Assembly: GCA_003225175.1 (NCBI GenBank)
Contig: QIBA01000032.1
Coordinates: forward strand, 124,001-188,000
Length of the DNA: 64,000 nucleotides
Source of the DNA: Acidobacteriota bacterium
Lineage (GTDB): Bacteria > Acidobacteriota > Terriglobia > Terriglobales > Acidobacteriaceae
Direction: 5' to 3'
Position 1 is the first letter of the stretch; each line of letters begins with the position of its first letter. Of this stretch, positions 39,119 through 46,462 are shown one piece after another. The notes under the pieces were generated by a model. It searched no databases and was not told where the DNA came from. It was given only the letters and a program-made list of their open reading frames with translations. Position numbers and translations under genes: made by a program.

Positions 39119-39538
39119 CTAGCGCCAACCGAAACCGGTGTAGCGCGTCCAGTCCCAAACGCGATTGTAGCGGTCTCTGCGGGCCACTTGCCGATCGCGT
39201 TGGATGTCGCGGTATCGTTCGCGCATCTCCTCGCGCTCACGCTCTGCCGCACGATAGTTGCCTTCGCGTTCAAACTGGCGAAGTTCCCAACGATCGTGTT
39301 CCAGTTCGCGTTCGTCGCGCCGGATGTCACTGTGGATGTCGCGACGCTCACGACAGCCACGATACTGATCGTGGCGGACGTAGTCACCGCGCTGCCAGTT
39401 CCGGTCATTGTTATGGCGACCATAATCGGCGCGTCGCCAGTCGCTGCTGCCATGCGATCGCCAGTTACGGTTTTGTGCCATCACGGTGCCAGTACCGGCC
39501 AGTGCTAACAGCAAAATCCCCACTGCTATTCCTTTCAT
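39119..39538 (-). CDS. Arg/Asp-rich secreted protein, intact paralogue
   Basis: Exported protein of 139 residues. The signal peptide is MKGIAVGILLLALAGTGTVM with cleavage near AQN. The mature part is Arg/Asp/Glu-rich: RRDIHSDIRRDERELEHD, REREEMRERYRDIQRDRQ, ending in WTRYTGFGWR. It should form a long charged helix or coiled coil. A second, frameshifted copy lies at 39781-40108. Function unknown; such proteins are common in acidobacteria and related to Trp-rich/Arg-rich periplasmic proteins. Confidence 0.68.
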   Translation of the reverse strand: MKGIAVGILLLALAGTGTVMAQNRNWRSHGSSDWRRADYGRHNNDRNWQRGDYVRHDQYRGCRERRDIHSDIRRDERELEHDRWELRQFEREGNYRAAEREREEMRERYRDIQRDRQVARRDRYNRVWDWTRYTGFGWR

Positions 39539-39780: not shown

Positions 39781-40108
39781 TTAACGCCAACCCCAGTACC
39801 GGTCATGGCGGACGTCACGGGTATCGCGGCGAGCATCCCAGCGGTCGCGCTTGATGTCGCGGTATTCATTCCGCAATTCCGCGCTCTCGCTGTGCTCCGC
39901 GCCAGTCGCCTTCACGAAGCTCCTCACGAAGTTCGCGGCGATCCTGAGCAATCCTGGCTCGATCATGACTCATGTCTCGATAATCAGCGCGGCGGTCTGC
40001 GTAGTCGCGTCGAAGATCGCGGTCGGCTCTCCAGTCGCGATCTTCCGCCATCAACGAGCCGGCGCCTAGGATTCCCATGAGAACTATGCCAATCAGAGTG
40101 CGTTTCAT
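39781..40108 (-). pseudogene. Arg/Asp-rich secreted protein, paralogue broken by a frameshift
   Basis: ATG at 40108 starts a signal peptide (MKRTLIGIVLMGILGAGSL) and an Arg/Asp-rich mature part (RDWRADRDLRRDYADRR) that ends early at a stop at 39866. The expected continuation lies in another frame: AELRNEYRDIKRDRWDAR and ending DRYWGWR at 39781. A single indel around 39895-39905 would restore a full-length protein of about 109 residues like its neighbour at 39119. Either a recent mutation or a sequencing error. Confidence 0.6.
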
Positions 40109-40226
40109 AATCTTTTTCTCCTCGTCACGGCCCGCCGGCAGGCCTACCAGTAGAAACACGACTCGGCCCAAGAGTTGCGGTGATTAAAAAGTGGCACAGA
40201 CACAATGGACTGCTCAGCGTGTGAGG

Positions 40227-40489: not shown

Positions 40490-41323
40490 TCACAGCCCAG
40501 CTTCAATCCGCGAGCGTGGATCGAGATAATCGCGCAGTGCATCACCAATAAAATTGAACGACAGCACGGCGAGCATCACAGCCGCGGCAGGGAACAGGAC
40601 CAGGTGGGGCGCATCGAAAAGATGCGAGCGGCCGTCGTTCAACATGGAGCCCCAACTTGCTGTCGGTGGCGGTATTCCTAACCCGAGAAAGCTCATTGTT
40701 GCCTCGGCAAGCACAGCTCCCGCCATGCCAATTGCCGCCTGCACAATGACCGGCTGGATAATGTTCGGCAGAATATGACGTGTAATTACCCGCCAGTCAC
40801 TGGCTCCCAAGGCCCGAGCAGCTTCCACAAATTCCCGTTCCCGAACCGACAGCACCTGTGCTCGCACGAGTCGCGCATAGCCAACCCATCCGCCAATCCA
40901 GAGCGCAAGAATCAGGTTGAAGATTCCCGGTCCGAGGAAGGCCACGAAGGCGATGGCCAGCAGAATTCCAGGGAACGACAAAAACGCGTTCATCACCACA
41001 ATATTGAAAAAGCGGTCAATGCCGCCGCCGTAGTATCCGGCGATGCATCCGAAAAATAATCCGAGCAGCAATGAGCCGGCGACTACGCTGACTCCTACGA
41101 GCATTGAGATACGCGCGCCATAAATCACGCGCGAAAGGATGTCGCGTCCAAGCTCATCCGTGCCAAACCAATGCCCATGGCTCGGCCTTTCAAGGCGAGT
41201 CGACAGATCAAGCTGCGCCGGATCACGCGGCGCAATCAACGGCGCAAATAGCGCAAAGATCACGAACAGACAAACAAGCACGACGCCAAAGGCAGCGAGG
41301 CGATTGCGGAGGACTGAGCGCAT
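40490..41323 (-). CDS. ABC transporter permease, DppC/OppC type
   Basis: Dipeptide/oligopeptide-type inner-membrane permease of 277 residues with about six membrane segments. The N-terminal OppC-like start (LAAFGVVLVCLFVIFALFAP) and the loop FGTDELGRDILSRVIYGARIS are typical. The cytoplasmic EAA loop reads EAARALGASDWRVITRHILP, where the ATPase docks. The partner permease (DppB), substrate-binding protein and ATPases are not adjacent on either side. The gene is isolated between repeat elements, which suggests rearrangement or partners encoded elsewhere. Confidence 0.9.
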   Translation of the reverse strand: MRSVLRNRLAAFGVVLVCLFVIFALFAPLIAPRDPAQLDLSTRLERPSHGHWFGTDELGRDILSRVIYGARISMLVGVSVVAGSLLLGLFFGCIAGYYGGGIDRFFNIVVMNAFLSFPGILLAIAFVAFLGPGIFNLILALWIGGWVGYARLVRAQVLSVREREFVEAARALGASDWRVITRHILPNIIQPVIVQAAIGMAGAVLAEATMSFLGLGIPPPTASWGSMLNDGRSHLFDAPHLVLFPAAAVMLAVLSFNFIGDALRDYLDPRSRIEAGL

Positions 41324-41338
41324 GAGACGAACTCATTT

Positions 41339-41485
41339 AACCACGGACGCGAGGGAGCCGGGAGAAAGCAAAAAAAAAACTAAACAGTGAAGTACACGAA
41401 GGATCACGAAGAATAAAACCAGTGAGCTCTGTGCTCCGGGATTCCTTCCTTTGTGCTCCTTTCTGCGCTTCATGGTTTTACTCGG
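41339..41485. repeat. Decayed family B inverted repeat element
   Basis: A left arm ACCACGGACGCGAGGGAGCC and a right arm with TCCTTTGTGCTCCTTTCTG and CTTCATGGTTTTAC flank about 90 nt. No gene. Related to 5540-5722 and 60676-60820. Confidence 0.4.
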
Positions 41486-41568
41486 GTCAGGCTAGCGTAG
41501 TTGCCATGAGACGTAAGTCTCAAGAATCAATTACTTACGCTCTGATCAGAAATTCACAAGCAACCCGC

Positions 41569-41606
41569 TTGACATCTATTGCAATAAGTAATATTGTTAT
41601 TGCGAT
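41569..41606 (+). promoter_or_regulatory. Promoter with overlapping palindromic operator of the XRE-flotillin operon
   Basis: TTGACA (41569-41574) is followed after 17 nt by TATTGT (41592-41597). The palindrome ATTGCAATAA (41578-41587) / TTATTGCGAT (41597-41606) spans the spacer and -10. The GTG of the regulator gene lies at 41627, so the site is where an autorepressor would bind. Confidence 0.65.
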
Positions 41607-41626
41607 TTGTGATAGAGAGAAAAACC

Positions 41627-42157
41627 GTGAAGCTAGGCGAGAAAATTCGGTACCTGCGTGAGGTGGAAGGCAGCATTCGCGGGCTTGGTCGCGAGATGAC
41701 GCAGCAGGAGATCGTTCGTGCACTAAAGAAAGAGTCGGGCGCGAGCATCAGTCAGTCATATCTGTCGCAGATCGAGAAGGGCGCGCGTCCGCACCTCACC
41801 AACACCACGCGCTTGTTGCTCGCACGCTTCTTCAAGGTTCATCCGGGATACCTGGTGGATGACCCCGAGGGCTATCACACTGAATTGATTTCGGAGGTGC
41901 GCACGCTTGAGGAACGTCTTGATCTTTGGCTGATCGCCGGGGCCGAGCGCTTCCGCCGCGATGCGCAGGTAAGCCACGCGCTGCTGGAGGCGGCCAAGCA
42001 CGACGACTCGCGCGGTTGCCTCGTGTTGCTCGGCGCCATTTTGGACACGCCGGGACTGGCGGAACGCTTGCTTCAGGTCCTGAAACCGAATGGGCACAGC
42101 CGCGAAAACGGGAAGCGCAAACTGGATGGCAGCACGCGCGGAGAGGAGATCTTATGA
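41627..42157 (+). CDS. XRE-family helix-turn-helix regulator
   Basis: First gene of a five-gene operon. GTG at 41627 begins KLGEKIRYLREVEGS, and the HTH includes SQSYLSQIEKGARPHLTN and a preceding loop with REMTQQEIV. The HTH is atypical in that the first helices are separated by an insertion. Residues 95-175 form a helical, unrecognised domain (RTLEERLDLWLIAGAERFRR). Palindromic DNA overlapping the promoter suggests autoregulation. The ATGA at its end starts the next gene, so expression is coupled. Confidence 0.82.
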   Translation: MKLGEKIRYLREVEGSIRGLGREMTQQEIVRALKKESGASISQSYLSQIEKGARPHLTNTTRLLLARFFKVHPGYLVDDPEGYHTELISEVRTLEERLDLWLIAGAERFRRDAQVSHALLEAAKHDDSRGCLVLLGAILDTPGLAERLLQVLKPNGHSRENGKRKLDGSTRGEEIL

Positions 42158-42747
42158 ATTGGGAACTCTTCTATCTGATCTGTTTCATTGTGGGATTCGG
42201 GTTCAGCGCGCTCTCGTTCTTGACGGGAACTCTGCATCTTCATCTGCCTGTGAAATGGCATTTACATCTGGGCAAGGGTTTGGGTTCGAGCGGCGGTCTC
42301 TCCATTTTTAATTCGTTCTCACTCATGGCGTTCCTGACCTGGTTTGGCGCCATGGGATATCTGATGACCCGGCATTCGAGCTTCTGGTTCGGATTTATTC
42401 TTGCCGCGGCAACGCTTGGCGGCAGCGTCGGGGGCTCGATCATTTTCCTCTTCCTTGCAAAGTTCCTGATGAAGTACGACGTCGGGGTTGACGCTGCGGA
42501 ATACGAGATGACGGGGGTGCTTGGCCGCGTGACTAGTTCGATCCGCAGTGGCGGTACGGGAGAAATGGTCTTTGAACAAGTAGGCACGCGGCGTAGTTGC
42601 GGCGCACGGAGTGAAGACGGAACGCCGATCGCGAAAGGAACAGAAGTGGTCGTTACGCGTTATGAGTGCGGTATCGCGTACGTGCGTACCTGGGACGAGA
42701 TTTCCGGAGAGGCCGATGCCAAAGCCGGAGAGTTGAGCAAACAGTAG
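42154..42747 (+). CDS. NfeD-like membrane protein with C-terminal OB fold
   Basis: Membrane protein of 197 residues whose ATG overlaps the stop of the regulator gene (ATGA) with GAGAGGAG before it. Two to three membrane segments (YLICFIVGFGFSALSFL; FWFGFILAAATLGGSVGGSIIF) are followed by an OB-like domain of about 75 residues (MTGVLGRVTSSIRSGGTGE; ARSEDGTPIAKGTEVVVTRY). This is the YuaF/NfeD pattern that accompanies flotillins. A true NfeD protease domain is absent. Its job is probably to help anchor or organise the flotillin encoded next. Confidence 0.78.
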   Translation: MNWELFYLICFIVGFGFSALSFLTGTLHLHLPVKWHLHLGKGLGSSGGLSIFNSFSLMAFLTWFGAMGYLMTRHSSFWFGFILAAATLGGSVGGSIIFLFLAKFLMKYDVGVDAAEYEMTGVLGRVTSSIRSGGTGEMVFEQVGTRRSCGARSEDGTPIAKGTEVVVTRYECGIAYVRTWDEISGEADAKAGELSKQ

Positions 42748-42781
42748 TTGGATCCCTTATTGGGATGCAGGGAGAAACGTT

Positions 42782-44233
42782 ATGTCACATGACTTACAGA
42801 TTTGGGTGGGTTTGGGGCTCCTTGGACTTTTCCTCCTTTTGACAGGAATCGCCAAGCTGTTCGTAAAAGCTGGACCAAATGAAGCATTGATTGTTTATGG
42901 ATTTCGAGGAAGACGAGTACGAACGGGACGCGGGACTCTCATATTTCCACTGGTTGAGAGTTCAAGAATGTTGTCGCTGGAGCTGATGTCGTTCGATGTA
43001 GCTCCGCAACAGGATCTGTACACGAATCAGGGAGTCGCCGTATCGGTAGAAGCCGTGGCACAGATCAAGGTGAAGTCGGACGAAGTTTCGATCTTCACGG
43101 CAGCCGAGCAATTCCTGACCAAGACGCCAGGGCAGCGCGAAGGCCTGATTCGTCTGGTGATGGAGGGTCATCTGCGCGGCATTATCGGTCAACTCACGGT
43201 GGAACAGATCGTTAAGGAGCCGGAGATGGTTGCCGATCGCATGCGATCGACTTGTTCTGACGATCTGAACAAAATGGGCCTCGAAGTGGTCTCGTTCACG
43301 ATCAAGGAAGTGAAGGACAAGAACGAATACATCGCCAATATGGGACGTCCGGATGTTGCTCGCATCAAGCGCGATGCCGACGTTGCCGCCGCCGAAGCGG
43401 AGCGGGATACGGCGATCAAGCGCGCAGAAGCGCTACGCGAGTCCGCGATCGCAAAGGCCAAGGCCGATCAGGAGCGCGTGCTCGCCGAGACGCTCTCGCA
43501 GGCCAAGCAGGCCGAAGCACAGCGCGATCTTGAGGTCAAAAAAGCTGCCTACTCGGAGCTGATTAAGAAGCAGCAGGCGCAGGCCGATAAGGCTTATGAG
43601 ATCCAGGCCAACATTCAACAGCAGTCGGTGATCGCCGAGGCTGTGAAGGTTCAGCAGATTGAGAAAGAACAGCAGATCAAGGTGCAGGAAGCCGAAATCC
43701 TGCGTCATGAGAAGGAGCTGATCGCGACCGTGCTCAAAGAGGCTGAGATCGAGCGTCAGCGCATTCAGACGCTGGCCGAAGCCGAGCGTCAACGCCAGAC
43801 GCTCGAAGCGGAAGGCCGTGCCTCTGCGACGCGCGCGCAAGGGGAGGCAGAAGCCGAGATCATCTTCAAGAAAGGCGAGGCCGAAGCCAAGGCGATGAAC
43901 GTGAAGGCCGAAGCTTATCAGGAGTGGAACCAGGCGGCCGTTGTCGACAGGCTGATCACCAGTCTTCCCGAAGTGGTCCGTGCGATGGCGGCGCCACTCG
44001 CGAACGTCGATAAGATCACGATCGTCTCCACCGGCAACGATGGAGCGGCAGGCGCCAGCAAAATCACCGGCGACATGGCGAAGATCGCGGCACAAGTTCC
44101 AGCACTGTTCGAAGCCTTCTCCGGCATGAACATGAACGAGCTGCTTGGCCGGGTGAAGCAGTTGAAGTCCGACAAGACAGACGGCGACGCTTCGAAGAAG
44201 AAGTCGGCGGGTGCCGGTTCGCAGACACAGTAA
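42782..44233 (+). CDS. Flotillin family protein (FloT/YuaG-like)
   Basis: SPFH/flotillin protein of 483 residues that scaffolds membrane domains. A short N-terminal membrane segment (GLGLLGLFLLLTGIAKLF) is followed by the SPFH domain (residues 30-190; GQREGLIRLVMEGHLRGIIG). The remainder to about residue 390 is a long Glu/Ala/Gln/Lys coiled coil (EAERDTAIKRAEALRESAI). The C-terminus is Ser/Gly/Lys-rich. GGGAGAAACGTT precedes the ATG. A small imperfect hairpin (44245-44274) lies just after the stop. Confidence 0.9.
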   Translation: MSHDLQIWVGLGLLGLFLLLTGIAKLFVKAGPNEALIVYGFRGRRVRTGRGTLIFPLVESSRMLSLELMSFDVAPQQDLYTNQGVAVSVEAVAQIKVKSDEVSIFTAAEQFLTKTPGQREGLIRLVMEGHLRGIIGQLTVEQIVKEPEMVADRMRSTCSDDLNKMGLEVVSFTIKEVKDKNEYIANMGRPDVARIKRDADVAAAEAERDTAIKRAEALRESAIAKAKADQERVLAETLSQAKQAEAQRDLEVKKAAYSELIKKQQAQADKAYEIQANIQQQSVIAEAVKVQQIEKEQQIKVQEAEILRHEKELIATVLKEAEIERQRIQTLAEAERQRQTLEAEGRASATRAQGEAEAEIIFKKGEAEAKAMNVKAEAYQEWNQAAVVDRLITSLPEVVRAMAAPLANVDKITIVSTGNDGAAGASKITGDMAKIAAQVPALFEAFSGMNMNELLGRVKQLKSDKTDGDASKKKSAGAGSQTQ

Positions 44234-44301
44234 TAAGTTCACAAGGGAGACGCCCGCCAAAGCGAGCGTTTCTCCTGGAAGAATGATTTGCAGGAGTAGT
44301 T

Positions 44302-44451
44302 ATGAATCCATGGAAAGGTGCATTCGTGGCGGTGCTGCTGAGCGGGGTGGTCTTCGGCATTCTTAACGGACACCTCGCCGTGTGGACCGCCGTCGGAGCG
44401 GCACTGGGCGCTGTGCTCGCAGGTCGGGAAAGAAATCGGGTTATGACTTGA
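44302..44451 (+). CDS. 49-residue membrane protein within the flotillin operon
   Basis: MNPWKGAFVAVLLSGVVFGI followed by LNGHLAVWTAVGAALGAVLA and a short basic tail (GRERNRVMT). Two hydrophobic segments are separated by a short polar turn. The ATG at 44302 has AGGAG 5 nt upstream. It sits between flotillin and PspA in the same direction with no terminator before it. No family is recognised. The site, ribosome binding and composition support a real gene that would be missed by length cut-offs. Confidence 0.7.
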   Translation: MNPWKGAFVAVLLSGVVFGILNGHLAVWTAVGAALGAVLAGRERNRVMT

Positions 44452-44541
44452 TTGAGCGATCAGATGGCTCACGACAAATCGTCAAAGGCCCCGAGCACTC
44501 AGATGCAAGGAAATAGCTGATCTACGGAAAGGAGTTGAGTC

Positions 44542-45204
44542 ATGGCATTACTGGAAAGAGTTTCGACATTAATCCGGGCCAACATCAATGACCTGGTCGA
44601 TAAGGCAGAAGATCCCGAGAAGATGATCAAGCAGGTCATCCTCGACATGCAGAACCAGCTTCTTCAGGTGAAAACACAGGTAGCGATTGCGATCGCCGAC
44701 CAGCACCTCCTGGAGAAGAAACAGAAAGAGAACCTCGAGAAAGCAGCCGAGTGGACACGCAAGGCGGAGCTTGCTGTTTCGAAGAAGCAGGACGATCTCG
44801 CACGGGCCGCTATCGAGCGCTCGCTAAGCACGAAACAGACTGCGCAGAACTTCGAGCAGCAGGTTGCCGATCAAAAGATCGAAGTTGAGAACTTGAAGAC
44901 CGCTCTCCGCAAGCTCGAGCAAAAGCTCGAAGAGGCGCAGTCGAAATGCGATGTGCTGGTTGCCCAGGCTCGCCGGTCTCGTGTGGTCGGGAAGGCTCGC
45001 ACCGCGCAGTCCGCTGCTGGCGATGGCAAGCATGTTGAGACTTTCGACCGCATGAAACAAAAGGTTCGGCGCGGCGAAGCTATCAACCACGCGCATCAGG
45101 AGCTAAGCGGCGATTCCATCGAGGATCGTTTCGCGACCTTGGAACGCGAGGACGAAATCGAGCGCCTATTGGCCGAGATCAAGAATAAGAGCGCGTCAGC
45201 GTAG
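44542..45204 (+). CDS. pspA: PspA/IM30/Vipp1 family protein
   Basis: ESCRT-III-like membrane-stress protein of 220 residues, almost entirely helical. The amphipathic N-helix (ALLERVSTLIRANINDLV) is followed by the long coiled coil with AEDPEKMIKQVILDMQNQL, the canonical PspA start. It binds and repairs inner membrane and, in other bacteria, is induced by membrane stress. AAGGAG lies about 8 nt before the ATG. The C-terminus ends in EDEIERLLAEIKNKS. As the last gene of the XRE-flotillin operon it suggests the whole unit responds to envelope damage. Confidence 0.9.
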   Translation: MALLERVSTLIRANINDLVDKAEDPEKMIKQVILDMQNQLLQVKTQVAIAIADQHLLEKKQKENLEKAAEWTRKAELAVSKKQDDLARAAIERSLSTKQTAQNFEQQVADQKIEVENLKTALRKLEQKLEEAQSKCDVLVAQARRSRVVGKARTAQSAAGDGKHVETFDRMKQKVRRGEAINHAHQELSGDSIEDRFATLEREDEIERLLAEIKNKSASA

Positions 45205-45389
45205 ACACGGCTGTCGGCTCTCGGGTGTCGGCGTTCGGCCGACTGCCAGCTGGGAATTCGATACCTGGATTTCCTTTGGCGCTTCGCGATCGTGAGTTGG
45301 ATGGCTCCTTGATGTTCAGTGGCCGACCGCCGACAGCCTACGTCGCAGCAGCGCTCGCGTTAGCAACTCATTTGTGCCATCCTGATTAC

Positions 45390-45659
45390 GTGAAGAGCCA
45401 AAGCCAACGCGACCTTGAAAAACACTGGGCCGAGCAATCAAAGAAACAAACGCCCGCAGAACGCCTCCGCATGAAGGCAGAGAAGTTGCGCAAACGAATC
45501 GAGCGCGACCAAGCCTTGCTCGAGCGACGCCGGAAGCCGGGTGAAGGATCCGCACTGCAACCTGCGGGACAGGCCGCATCTGCAGCTCCTTCGCAGAATG
45601 AACGCAAGTCCAGTAATTCCCAATCGGGTGGATCAGCGCGGCGCAAACTCACGAAATGA
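45390..45659 (+). CDS. Small basic coiled-coil protein, overlapping the CAP gene
   Basis: Frame of 89 residues from GTG 45390 (KSQSQRDLEKHWAEQSKKQT...). The first half is a charged helix rich in Lys, Glu and Arg, the second Ser/Gln/Ala-rich. The sequence upstream in this frame (from 45225) looks like intergenic DNA, so the shorter form is used; no good ribosome site is present. Its stop overlaps the ATG of the CAP gene in an ATGA, which supports a real coupled gene. No family is recognised. Confidence 0.45.
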   Translation: MKSQSQRDLEKHWAEQSKKQTPAERLRMKAEKLRKRIERDQALLERRRKPGEGSALQPAGQAASAAPSQNERKSSNSQSGGSARRKLTK

Positions 45660-46462
45660 TGCGAGTATCGCGCCTTGTAATGCTGCTCTCTTGTCTTGTT
45701 TCGTTGCGGCTGCTCAGTCAGGAGATCACCAGCACAACGCAAATGGAGCAGCAGATACTCGAGTGGACCAACGAGGAGCGCGCGAAGGTCAACGCTCCGC
45801 CCCTCAAGTGGAATAACCGGCTGGCGATCGCCGCACGCTTACATTCTGACGAGATGGCCAACCACAAAGAGCTGACCCATCAGCTCAAGGGGGAGCCGCC
45901 TTTTACTCAGCGGCTATCGGAGCATGGCGCAAAGTTCAGCGGCGCCGCCGAGAATGTGGGTTACGCTGACAGCCCCGAGGAGCTGCAGAGCGGGTGGATG
46001 CACTCGCCGGGCCATCGCTCTAACGTGCTTAATCCTGTGTATACCGAATTGGGAGTCGGAATCGTGCGTGCCGGTAACCGTCTCTGGGCTACCGAAGATT
46101 TTGCAACCGGGCTGCAGAATCTCTCATCGGACGATTTCGAACAAGCCGTTGACCAGCAGATTGCATCCCGTCGCAGTCGTCGCCGCCTCGGAGCACTGAA
46201 AGCGACTCATGCTCCACAGCTGCGTCGCGTCGCCTGCTCCGGTGAAAGCTCCGCGAGCGCGGCCTTTGCCGCGTTGCCGCATCGTGACATGCAGGCGTCC
46301 GCATTCAATTTCACCACGGCAACTCCGAACGATCTTCCCGCCAATGCCATGAGCAAAGTGCTCGAGCTCCCCTCCGGTGGTTACTCCATCGGAGCTTGCC
46401 CAACCAAGGCCGATAATAATGGGATGAGTACCTACCGCGTACTCTTAGTCTTGTATCGCTGA
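45656..46462 (+). CDS. CAP/SCP-domain exported protein
   Basis: Protein of 268 residues with a signal (LVMLLSCLVSLRLLSQ). The CAP domain (residues 30-150) has EWTNEERAKVNAPPL, LHSDEMANHKELTHQ and SPGHRSNVLNPVYTELGVGI, matching the two His and Glu positions. Unlike short CAP proteins it continues for about 110 residues with a Ser/Ala-rich stretch and a Cys-containing tail (RRVACSGESSASAAF). Convergent with the next gene, whose stop is 3 nt away. Role unknown; bacterial CAP proteins are mostly of unknown function. Confidence 0.82.
   Translation: MMRVSRLVMLLSCLVSLRLLSQEITSTTQMEQQILEWTNEERAKVNAPPLKWNNRLAIAARLHSDEMANHKELTHQLKGEPPFTQRLSEHGAKFSGAAENVGYADSPEELQSGWMHSPGHRSNVLNPVYTELGVGIVRAGNRLWATEDFATGLQNLSSDDFEQAVDQQIASRRSRRRLGALKATHAPQLRRVACSGESSASAAFAALPHRDMQASAFNFTTATPNDLPANAMSKVLELPSGGYSIGACPTKADNNGMSTYRVLLVLYR

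What the first reader, a model, noticed from the sequence alone, without database searches (positions are those of the whole stretch)
41569..45204. Autoregulated flotillin-PspA operon with an unannotated 49-residue membrane protein
Five same-direction genes (XRE regulator, NfeD-like, flotillin, 49-residue two-span protein, PspA) run from a good promoter whose -10 and spacer are covered by a palindrome, ATTGCAATAA / TTATTGCGAT. Flotillin plus NfeD is a known pair and PspA is a known membrane-stress protein. Finding them together under one dedicated HTH regulator with a conserved-looking mini-protein suggests a compact envelope-stress module. The 49-residue gene would be missed by normal length thresholds.
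Basis: partly seen in the sequence, partly recalled or inferred. Interest (0 to 1): 0.6.

Follow-up and report, generated by a model that had tools for sequence, protein, structure and literature searches.

The report
Self-regulated flotillin and PspA gene cassette
A soil-bacterium gene cassette joins two membrane-care proteins, flotillin and PspA, with what looks like its own on/off switch, whose DNA landing site is conserved in nearly all relatives examined, and with a tiny two-span membrane protein that is really under selection.

Summary
Five genes read in one direction behind one promoter: XRE regulator (41627-42157), NfeD-like (42154-42747), flotillin (42782-44233), a 49-residue membrane protein (44302-44451) and PspA (44542-45204). 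The order XRE-NfeD-flotillin-PspA is intact on one contig in 20 of 23 genomes that have it (window included) and in 42 of 50 database loci; contig ends explain 3 and 7 of the rest. XRE, NfeD and flotillin occur in the same 23 of 61 genomes. The regulator's DNA-binding half resembles EspR. The 49-residue gene is a real protein (dN/dS 0.03-0.10), one of a varied class of small glycine-zipper proteins: 24 of 34 flotillin-PspA gaps of 150 nt or more hold one, but 26 of 60 loci have shorter gaps. Popp et al. 2022 already listed PspA with band7/FloT, NfeD and HTH genes in Acidobacteriota, so the gene set is not new; the operator, the EspR-like regulator and the mini-protein are additions. Repression and stress function are inferred.

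The parts
41569..41597 (+). sigma-70-type promoter, TTGACA-17-TATTGT
   Evidence: 10 of 12. A TTGAC starts 5-12 nt before the operator in 52 of 61 aligned sites.
41578..41613 (.). 36-bp four-box dyad operator ATTGCAATAAGTAATATTGTTATTGCGATTTGTGAT
   Evidence: found for 69 of 71 distinct XRE upstream regions; the only exact match of the pattern in the 5.73-Mb genome (98.9% complete).
41627..42157 (+). XRE/Cro-type regulator, 176 aa, EspR-like DNA-binding half plus a C-terminal helical domain
   Evidence: searches (HTH_3, 7.6e-6; EspR, 6e-7), model, (EspR Z 10.4). Start GTG.
42154..42747 (+). NfeD-like protein: membrane helices plus a C-terminal beta barrel; start overlaps the regulator's stop by 4 nt
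   Evidence: Pfam NfeD only 0.032, 9 of 19 family members at E 0.1 or better. Predicted fold matches the YuaF soluble domain 2k14, E 4.1e-6, and QmcA-YbbJ.
42782..44233 (+). flotillin, 483 aa
   Evidence: Band_7 4.9e-28 and Flot 2.5e-9; NCBIfam FloT model 319.5 bits, below its cut-off of 700.
44302..44451 (+). 49-residue two-span glycine-zipper mini-protein
   Evidence: Two spans judged from hydropathy by eye.
44542..45204 (+). PspA/IM30 family protein, 220 aa
   Evidence: PspA_IM30 3.4e-37; TIGR02977 1e-39, 136.5 bits, below its cut-off of 243.

Best explanation
It is a single-promoter membrane-maintenance cassette run by its own one-component switch. Inferred working: the XRE protein binds as a multimer to the four TTGC boxes that cover the -10 element, the predicted start site and, in half of the sites, everything up to its own start codon. 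It thereby shuts off RNA polymerase at this one promoter (autorepression). When the membrane is disturbed a signal releases XRE; the most likely sensor is its C-terminal helical domain, directly or through a cassette protein. The cell then makes flotillin with its NfeD partner (a membrane scaffold) and PspA (an ESCRT-III-like membrane stabiliser), plus, in many species, a glycine-zipper hairpin that may help hold PspA or flotillin at the membrane. Shown: gene order, joint presence and absence, operator conservation, fold families and selection on the small protein. Inferred: DNA binding, repression rather than activation, the stress signal, and the role of the hairpin.
For: XRE, NfeD and flotillin at E 1e-40 or better are in the same 23 of 61 genomes; PspA is in those 23 plus one same-genus genome, with 3 further weak hits. 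Order kept on one contig in 20 of the 23 genomes, window's own included, the other 3 being cut by contig ends, and in 42 of 50 loci of genome contigs. Operator for 69 of 71 distinct upstream regions; in G012 and G034, where an extra 175-aa gene precedes XRE, it sits 576 and 573 nt upstream, before that gene. One exact match in the own genome. It spans about -26 to +10 of the start predicted from the -10, which favours repression. In 32 of 61 sites it ends at the regulator's start codon. Regulator stop and NfeD start overlap by 4 nt in 18 of 23. EspR, the closest solved relative by sequence, binds TTTGC[TC][GA] and sits on its own promoter (PMC3315491, passages); the boxes here share the TTTGC core. 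In B. subtilis an SPFH protein, with two membrane proteins, places PspA at the membrane (PMC8581546, abstract).
Against: No expression or binding data. Pattern matches do not separate repressor from activator with certainty. 38 of 61 genomes lack XRE, so the cassette is dispensable. One locus (L149) has the regulator and a four-box dyad with the centre 4 bp shorter, but SPFH-like genes in place of NfeD-flotillin-PspA, so the regulator is not bound to this gene set alone. Extra genes lie inside several cassettes, and in G032 the flotillin match is split between two reading frames.
Confidence: 0.66

Rival explanations
1. XRE is an activator or dual regulator: it occupies the dyad and recruits polymerase under stress, as other XRE proteins can do.
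For: The -10 hexamer TATTGT is imperfect, and XRE-family members can activate (recalled).
Against: The dyad covers the -10 and the predicted start and in 32 of 61 sites runs to the start codon, a place for occlusion rather than recruitment. The -35 is a full consensus match in the window.
Confidence: 0.15
2. The cassette is a flotillin/NfeD membrane-fluidity or membrane-protein quality system, expressed at all times with feedback only to set its dose; it does not respond to envelope stress.
For: Autoregulation with a single exact genomic site suits dose control; flotillin with NfeD stabilises unfolded proteins in S. aureus (PMC11222466, abstract and section titles).
Against: PspA proteins are stress-induced in the model systems (recalled). 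A 36-bp, four-box operator is more than simple dose control seems to need (judgement).
Confidence: 0.25
3. The 49-residue gene is an unrelated small membrane gene that merely lodges in the flotillin-PspA gap and has no part in the module.
For: 26 of 60 loci have a gap under 150 nt and no room for such a gene; other insert genes occur in the same gaps; identity beyond the genus is only 18-37%.
Against: All 14 strong hits of the profile in 61 genomes lie at this slot (the profile was built from 12 such proteins, so this is partly circular). 24 of 34 longer gaps carry a sense-strand glycine-zipper ORF and 0 of 34 an antisense one; for hydrophobic small ORFs of any kind it is 29 against 8.
Confidence: 0.3

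Closest known systems
PspA network of Acidobacteriota predicted by Popp et al. 2022 (PMC9239133)
   Same: PspA with band7/FloT, NfeD and HTH regulators in its operons; 11 of 19 acidobacterial PspA had a band7_Flot neighbour (passages and sections 8 and 11 read).
   Different: The parts read name no regulator family, operator or small glycine-zipper protein; the term XRE has 0 occurrences in the main text. Figures and supplementary data were not open to me.
Flotillin-NfeD operons: yuaF-floT of B. subtilis, yqiJ-yqiK of E. coli (gene pairs recalled)
   Same: Flotillin next to an NfeD protein; the NfeD model matches the YuaF soluble domain.
   Different: PspA, a dedicated EspR-like XRE and the dyad operator are added.
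B. subtilis ydj operon with pspA, ydjG, ydjH and the SPFH gene ydjI (PMC8581546)
   Same: PspA coupled to an SPFH protein and membrane proteins (abstract).
   Different: YdjI behaves unlike classical flotillins (abstract); its partners are a TPM-domain and a zinc-ribbon membrane protein (PMC11237479, passage), not NfeD and a glycine zipper; no XRE head gene (recalled).
Mycobacterial psp operon with clgR, pspA, pspM, pspN
   Same: A Cro-type HTH gene and PspA in one operon, with an integral membrane protein (PMC11237479, passage).
   Different: No flotillin or NfeD is named for that operon; the regulator here resembles EspR, and ClgR did not appear among the 4 PDB matches, which does not exclude kinship.
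EspR of M. tuberculosis
   Same: DNA-binding half: E 6e-7 by profile, Z 10.4 over 82 residues; TTTGC core of the DNA motif.
   Different: EspR is a nucleoid-associated protein with hundreds of sites (PMC3315491, passages); here the pattern has one exact match in the genome. The C-terminal halves were not shown to be related.

Membership tests
Flotillin-NfeD gene pair | SPFH/Band_7 domain plus flotillin C-terminal domain | tested here: met
   Band_7 98.8 bits (cut-off 23.6), Flot 37.7 bits (cut-off 27).
Flotillin-NfeD gene pair | neighbouring membrane protein with NfeD-type OB barrel | tested here: met
   Foldseek: YuaF 2k14 E 4.1e-6, QmcA-YbbJ 8z5g 3.6e-5, though Pfam NfeD is below its cut-off (14.9 against 29.1).
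Psp (phage-shock-protein) response | PspA/IM30 family protein | tested here: met
   128.6 bits, cut-off 33.9.
Psp response of the E. coli type | PspB and PspC partners in the operon | tested here: not met
   PspB: 0 matches in the genome. PspC: one match, on contig C66, not on the cassette's contig C32.
Psp response | induction by envelope stress | not testable with these tools
   Needs expression data.
EspR-type regulator | EspR-like HTH fold | tested here: met
   but other Cro/CI proteins score Z 8-10 in the same list, so the fold alone is not specific.
EspR-type regulator | C-terminal dimerisation domain and dimer-of-dimers DNA binding | tested here: inconclusive
   The C-terminal helices 90-152 were hardly covered by the structural matches; the four-box dyad fits but does not prove it.
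EspR-type regulator | TTTGC[TC][GA] sites | tested here: inconclusive
   Boxes share the TTTGC core but the next base is mostly A or G, not T or C.
ClgR-PspA-PspM-PspN | regulator homologous to ClgR | tested here: inconclusive
   No ClgR chain among 4 PDB matches at E 0.01; absence is not proof.
glycine-zipper small membrane proteins | GxxxGxxxG-type spacing in a membrane span | tested here: met
   with G or A allowed in the middle place; Pfam glycine-zipper models match only single members, weakly.

The most novel reading that the evidence does not exclude
A one-component envelope-stress switch in which a soluble EspR-like repressor, dedicated to one promoter, is released when flotillin/NfeD or PspA assemblies change, the glycine-zipper hairpin acting (where present) as the membrane-state sensor or PspA anchor: a Psp response with neither PspF, ClgR nor a two-component system, found in Acidobacteriota and Ktedonobacter and, as far as its contig goes, in a Rubrobacter MAG.
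Probability: 0.2. Interest if true: 0.7.

Novelty: new variant of a known kind. Interest (0 to 1): 0.5.

Why it matters
How bacteria without PspF, LiaRS or ClgR switch PspA on is, to my knowledge, largely open. Here a candidate regulator, its likely landing site and the set of co-regulated genes can be named from sequence, also in named strains such as Silvibacterium bohemicum S15 (L105), so the question becomes a direct bench test. It also gives a case where flotillin and PspA, two membrane-care systems usually studied apart, appear to be set by one switch.

Tried and rejected
A fixed-register alignment from TTGAC gave only a weak dyad (41% complementary at the best axis), because the distance to the operator varies by several bases; letting the site slide solved it. 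The motif search was seeded with the G022 site and forced to be symmetric; therefore unsymmetrised columns (17 of 18 with the same top base in both halves), leave-one-out scores and shuffles were checked.

With a fixed centre of 4 bp and 220 nt upstream, 61 of 71 regions carried the site. The 10 failures were re-scanned with a variable centre and up to 2.5 kb upstream: 8 were found at 29 bits or more (2 reaching past the start codon, 2 upstream of an extra gene, 3 with a 5-bp centre including Ktedonobacter L152, 1 with a 0-bp centre). L148 (its match starts only at regulator residue 40) and L153 (65 nt of upstream on the contig) were not found. Background under the same variable scan, 41 stretches downstream of XRE: best 4.3.

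The PspA hit in the Rubrobacter MAG L153 (26%) lies inside its flotillin gene and was dropped; its contig ends after flotillin. Two of 73 upstream regions (L140, L143) were duplicates and dropped; the same two and L153 were left out of the 60 loci, as were loci without flotillin and PspA on one contig. G004 was not recovered by the motif search for the small ORF and is missing from the dN/dS pairs. At least one of the 24 glycine-zipper ORFs (L150) meets the motif only through an A in the middle. Hits of the 49-residue query alone outside the cassette slot (E 0.0026-1) were judged chance. Downstream genes 45225-45659 and the CAP protein were considered as further members and left out: in 11 relatives' loci examined the 144-aa ORF matched only in G001; the CAP protein matched at 69-84% in G001 and G003 and at 29-30% in G028 and G012. 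Paper searches for glycine zipper with PspA and for EspR, flotillin, phage shock and PspA listed nothing on this system beyond the papers cited; only open PMC papers are covered and of the 291 only 15 were listed.

Full report
What is there. In 41569-45204 five genes run in the same direction: an XRE regulator from GTG 41627, an NfeD-like gene, a flotillin gene, a 49-residue membrane protein and pspA. The regulator stop and the NfeD start overlap by 4 nt, here and in 18 of 23 genomes in all. A promoter-like TTGACA-17-TATTGT stands before the first gene and no other was found in 41300-45800, though the scan finds 1.7 in shuffled sequence. The upstream gene is an OppC-like permease on the other strand; downstream lie an unnamed 144-aa ORF and a CAP-domain protein.

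Is it a unit? Four searches of the same 61 genomes answer this. XRE, NfeD and flotillin at E 1e-40 or better match in exactly the same 23 genomes. PspA matches strongly in those 23 and in G005, a same-genus genome 83% complete where the hit sits at a contig end, and weakly in three more. In the 23 (window's own included), all four genes lie in order on one contig in 20; in G002, G004 and G029 the contig ends and the rest lies on another contig. In G032 the flotillin match is split between two frames, a broken gene or an assembly error. In 50 loci fetched from named genomes the full order is present in 42; seven run off the contig first, counting L153, whose PspA hit I dropped; and one, L149, has the regulator followed by SPFH-like genes instead. 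The 42 include Ktedonobacter racemifer, phylum Chloroflexota, where a 143-aa ORF lies between the regulator and NfeD. In a broad sample of the window's phylum the regulator is patchy: 27 of 396 genomes, 22 of them in the window's own family.

The operator. The consensus is ATtGCAAaTTGCaATAttaaTATtGCAAtTTGCaAT, two half sites of two boxes each. In G022 all 36 bases are self-complementary; in the window 20 of 36. With fixed geometry 61 of 71 distinct regions carry it; the re-scan of the other 10 finds 8 more, 69 of 71 in all. The most telling cases are G012 and G034: nothing lies directly before the regulator, but an extra 175-aa gene precedes it, and the dyad sits before that gene at -576 and -573. 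So the element follows the operon's promoter, not the regulator gene as such. In this genome the pattern has one exact match; three other places match with two mismatches, against one for the pattern read backwards. I therefore expect a dedicated switch with one target. The dyad covers about -26 to +10 of the predicted start, and in 32 of 61 sites it ends at the start codon, so occlusion of polymerase is the simplest reading.

The regulator. Its first 88 residues resemble EspR of M. tuberculosis by profile (E 6e-7) and by predicted structure (Foldseek 1.6e-3; Z 10.4, rmsd 2.5, 82 residues). Other Cro/CI-type domains score nearly as well. EspR binds TTTGC[TC][GA] and acts on its own promoter (PMC3315491, passages); the boxes here share TTTGC but continue mostly with A or G. 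Residues 90-152 form four predicted helices that the listed matches hardly cover; they could hold the dimer contacts and the signal input.

NfeD, flotillin, PspA. Pfam supports flotillin and PspA well above cut-off; the stricter NCBIfam models for FloT and PspA are matched below their cut-offs. NfeD is far below the Pfam cut-off (14.9 against 29.1 bits) and 9 of 19 family members match at E 0.1 or better, but the predicted fold (mean pLDDT 81.6) matches the YuaF soluble domain at 4.1e-6 and the E. coli SPFH-NfeD complex. PspB is not found in the genome and PspC is on another contig, so this is not the E. coli kind of psp operon.

The 49-residue protein. It is real: among four species of the genus 67-92% of the base changes fall on third codon positions and dN/dS is 0.027-0.097 in all six pairs. 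It has an AGGAG before its ATG. Beyond the genus the sequence drifts (18-37% identity) but the plan of two glycine-rich spans stays. In 61 genomes the profile of 12 such proteins gives 14 hits at E 4e-16 or better, one per genome, all at this slot; all other hits are at 6e-7 or weaker. Among 60 loci with flotillin and PspA on one contig, 26 have gaps under 150 nt; of the 34 longer gaps 24 hold a sense-strand small hydrophobic ORF with the zipper motif and none an antisense one. So it is a frequent but optional partner. My guess that it anchors PspA or flotillin rests only on analogy with YdjG/YdjH, which help hold PspA at the membrane in B. subtilis (PMC8581546, abstract).

Known or new. Popp et al. 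2022 reported for Acidobacteriota that PspA genes lie with band7/FloT, NfeD and HTH-regulator genes and suggested that the regulators control the operon (PMC9239133, sections 8 and 11 and passages). Ravi et al. 2024 describe PspA with flotillin and YqiJ/YuaF proteins in other arrangements (PMC11237479, passages). The gene set is thus known in outline. I found nothing in the listings on the operator, the EspR-like nature of the regulator or the glycine-zipper protein; these searches cover open papers only, and two listings were capped. I rate it a new variant of a known kind.

Noticed in passing
L149:2819-5297: In an acidobacterial gp7 MAG the same XRE family, with a four-box dyad whose centre is 4 bp shorter, heads SPFH-like genes (judged by eye) rather than NfeD-flotillin-PspA: the regulator may be a more general SPFH-cassette switch.
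   Followed up: partly
L042 (G012) and L028 (G034), about 530 nt before XRE to its start: An extra 175-aa membrane-protein gene, alike in both genomes by eye, heads the cassette, with the operator before it.
   Followed up: partly
L028 (G034), between NfeD and flotillin: A truncated 187-aa flotillin-like ORF lies between NfeD and the full flotillin gene.
   Followed up: no
L037 (G014) and L039 (G033), NfeD-flotillin gap of about 1.07 kb: Multi-span membrane ORFs of 307 and 323 aa, similar to each other by eye, are inserted in the cassette.
   Followed up: no
L134:6498-6940: Two different small glycine-zipper ORFs side by side in one cassette.
   Followed up: no
32 of the 61 operator sites: The dyad ends exactly at the regulator's start codon, so the mRNA leader would be only about 9 nt: possibly a near-leaderless start.
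   Followed up: no
window 39119-39538 and 39866-40171, minus strand: Two small proteins rich in Arg and Asp, secreted-looking and similar in composition by eye; the first has no Pfam match at E 0.001.
   Followed up: no
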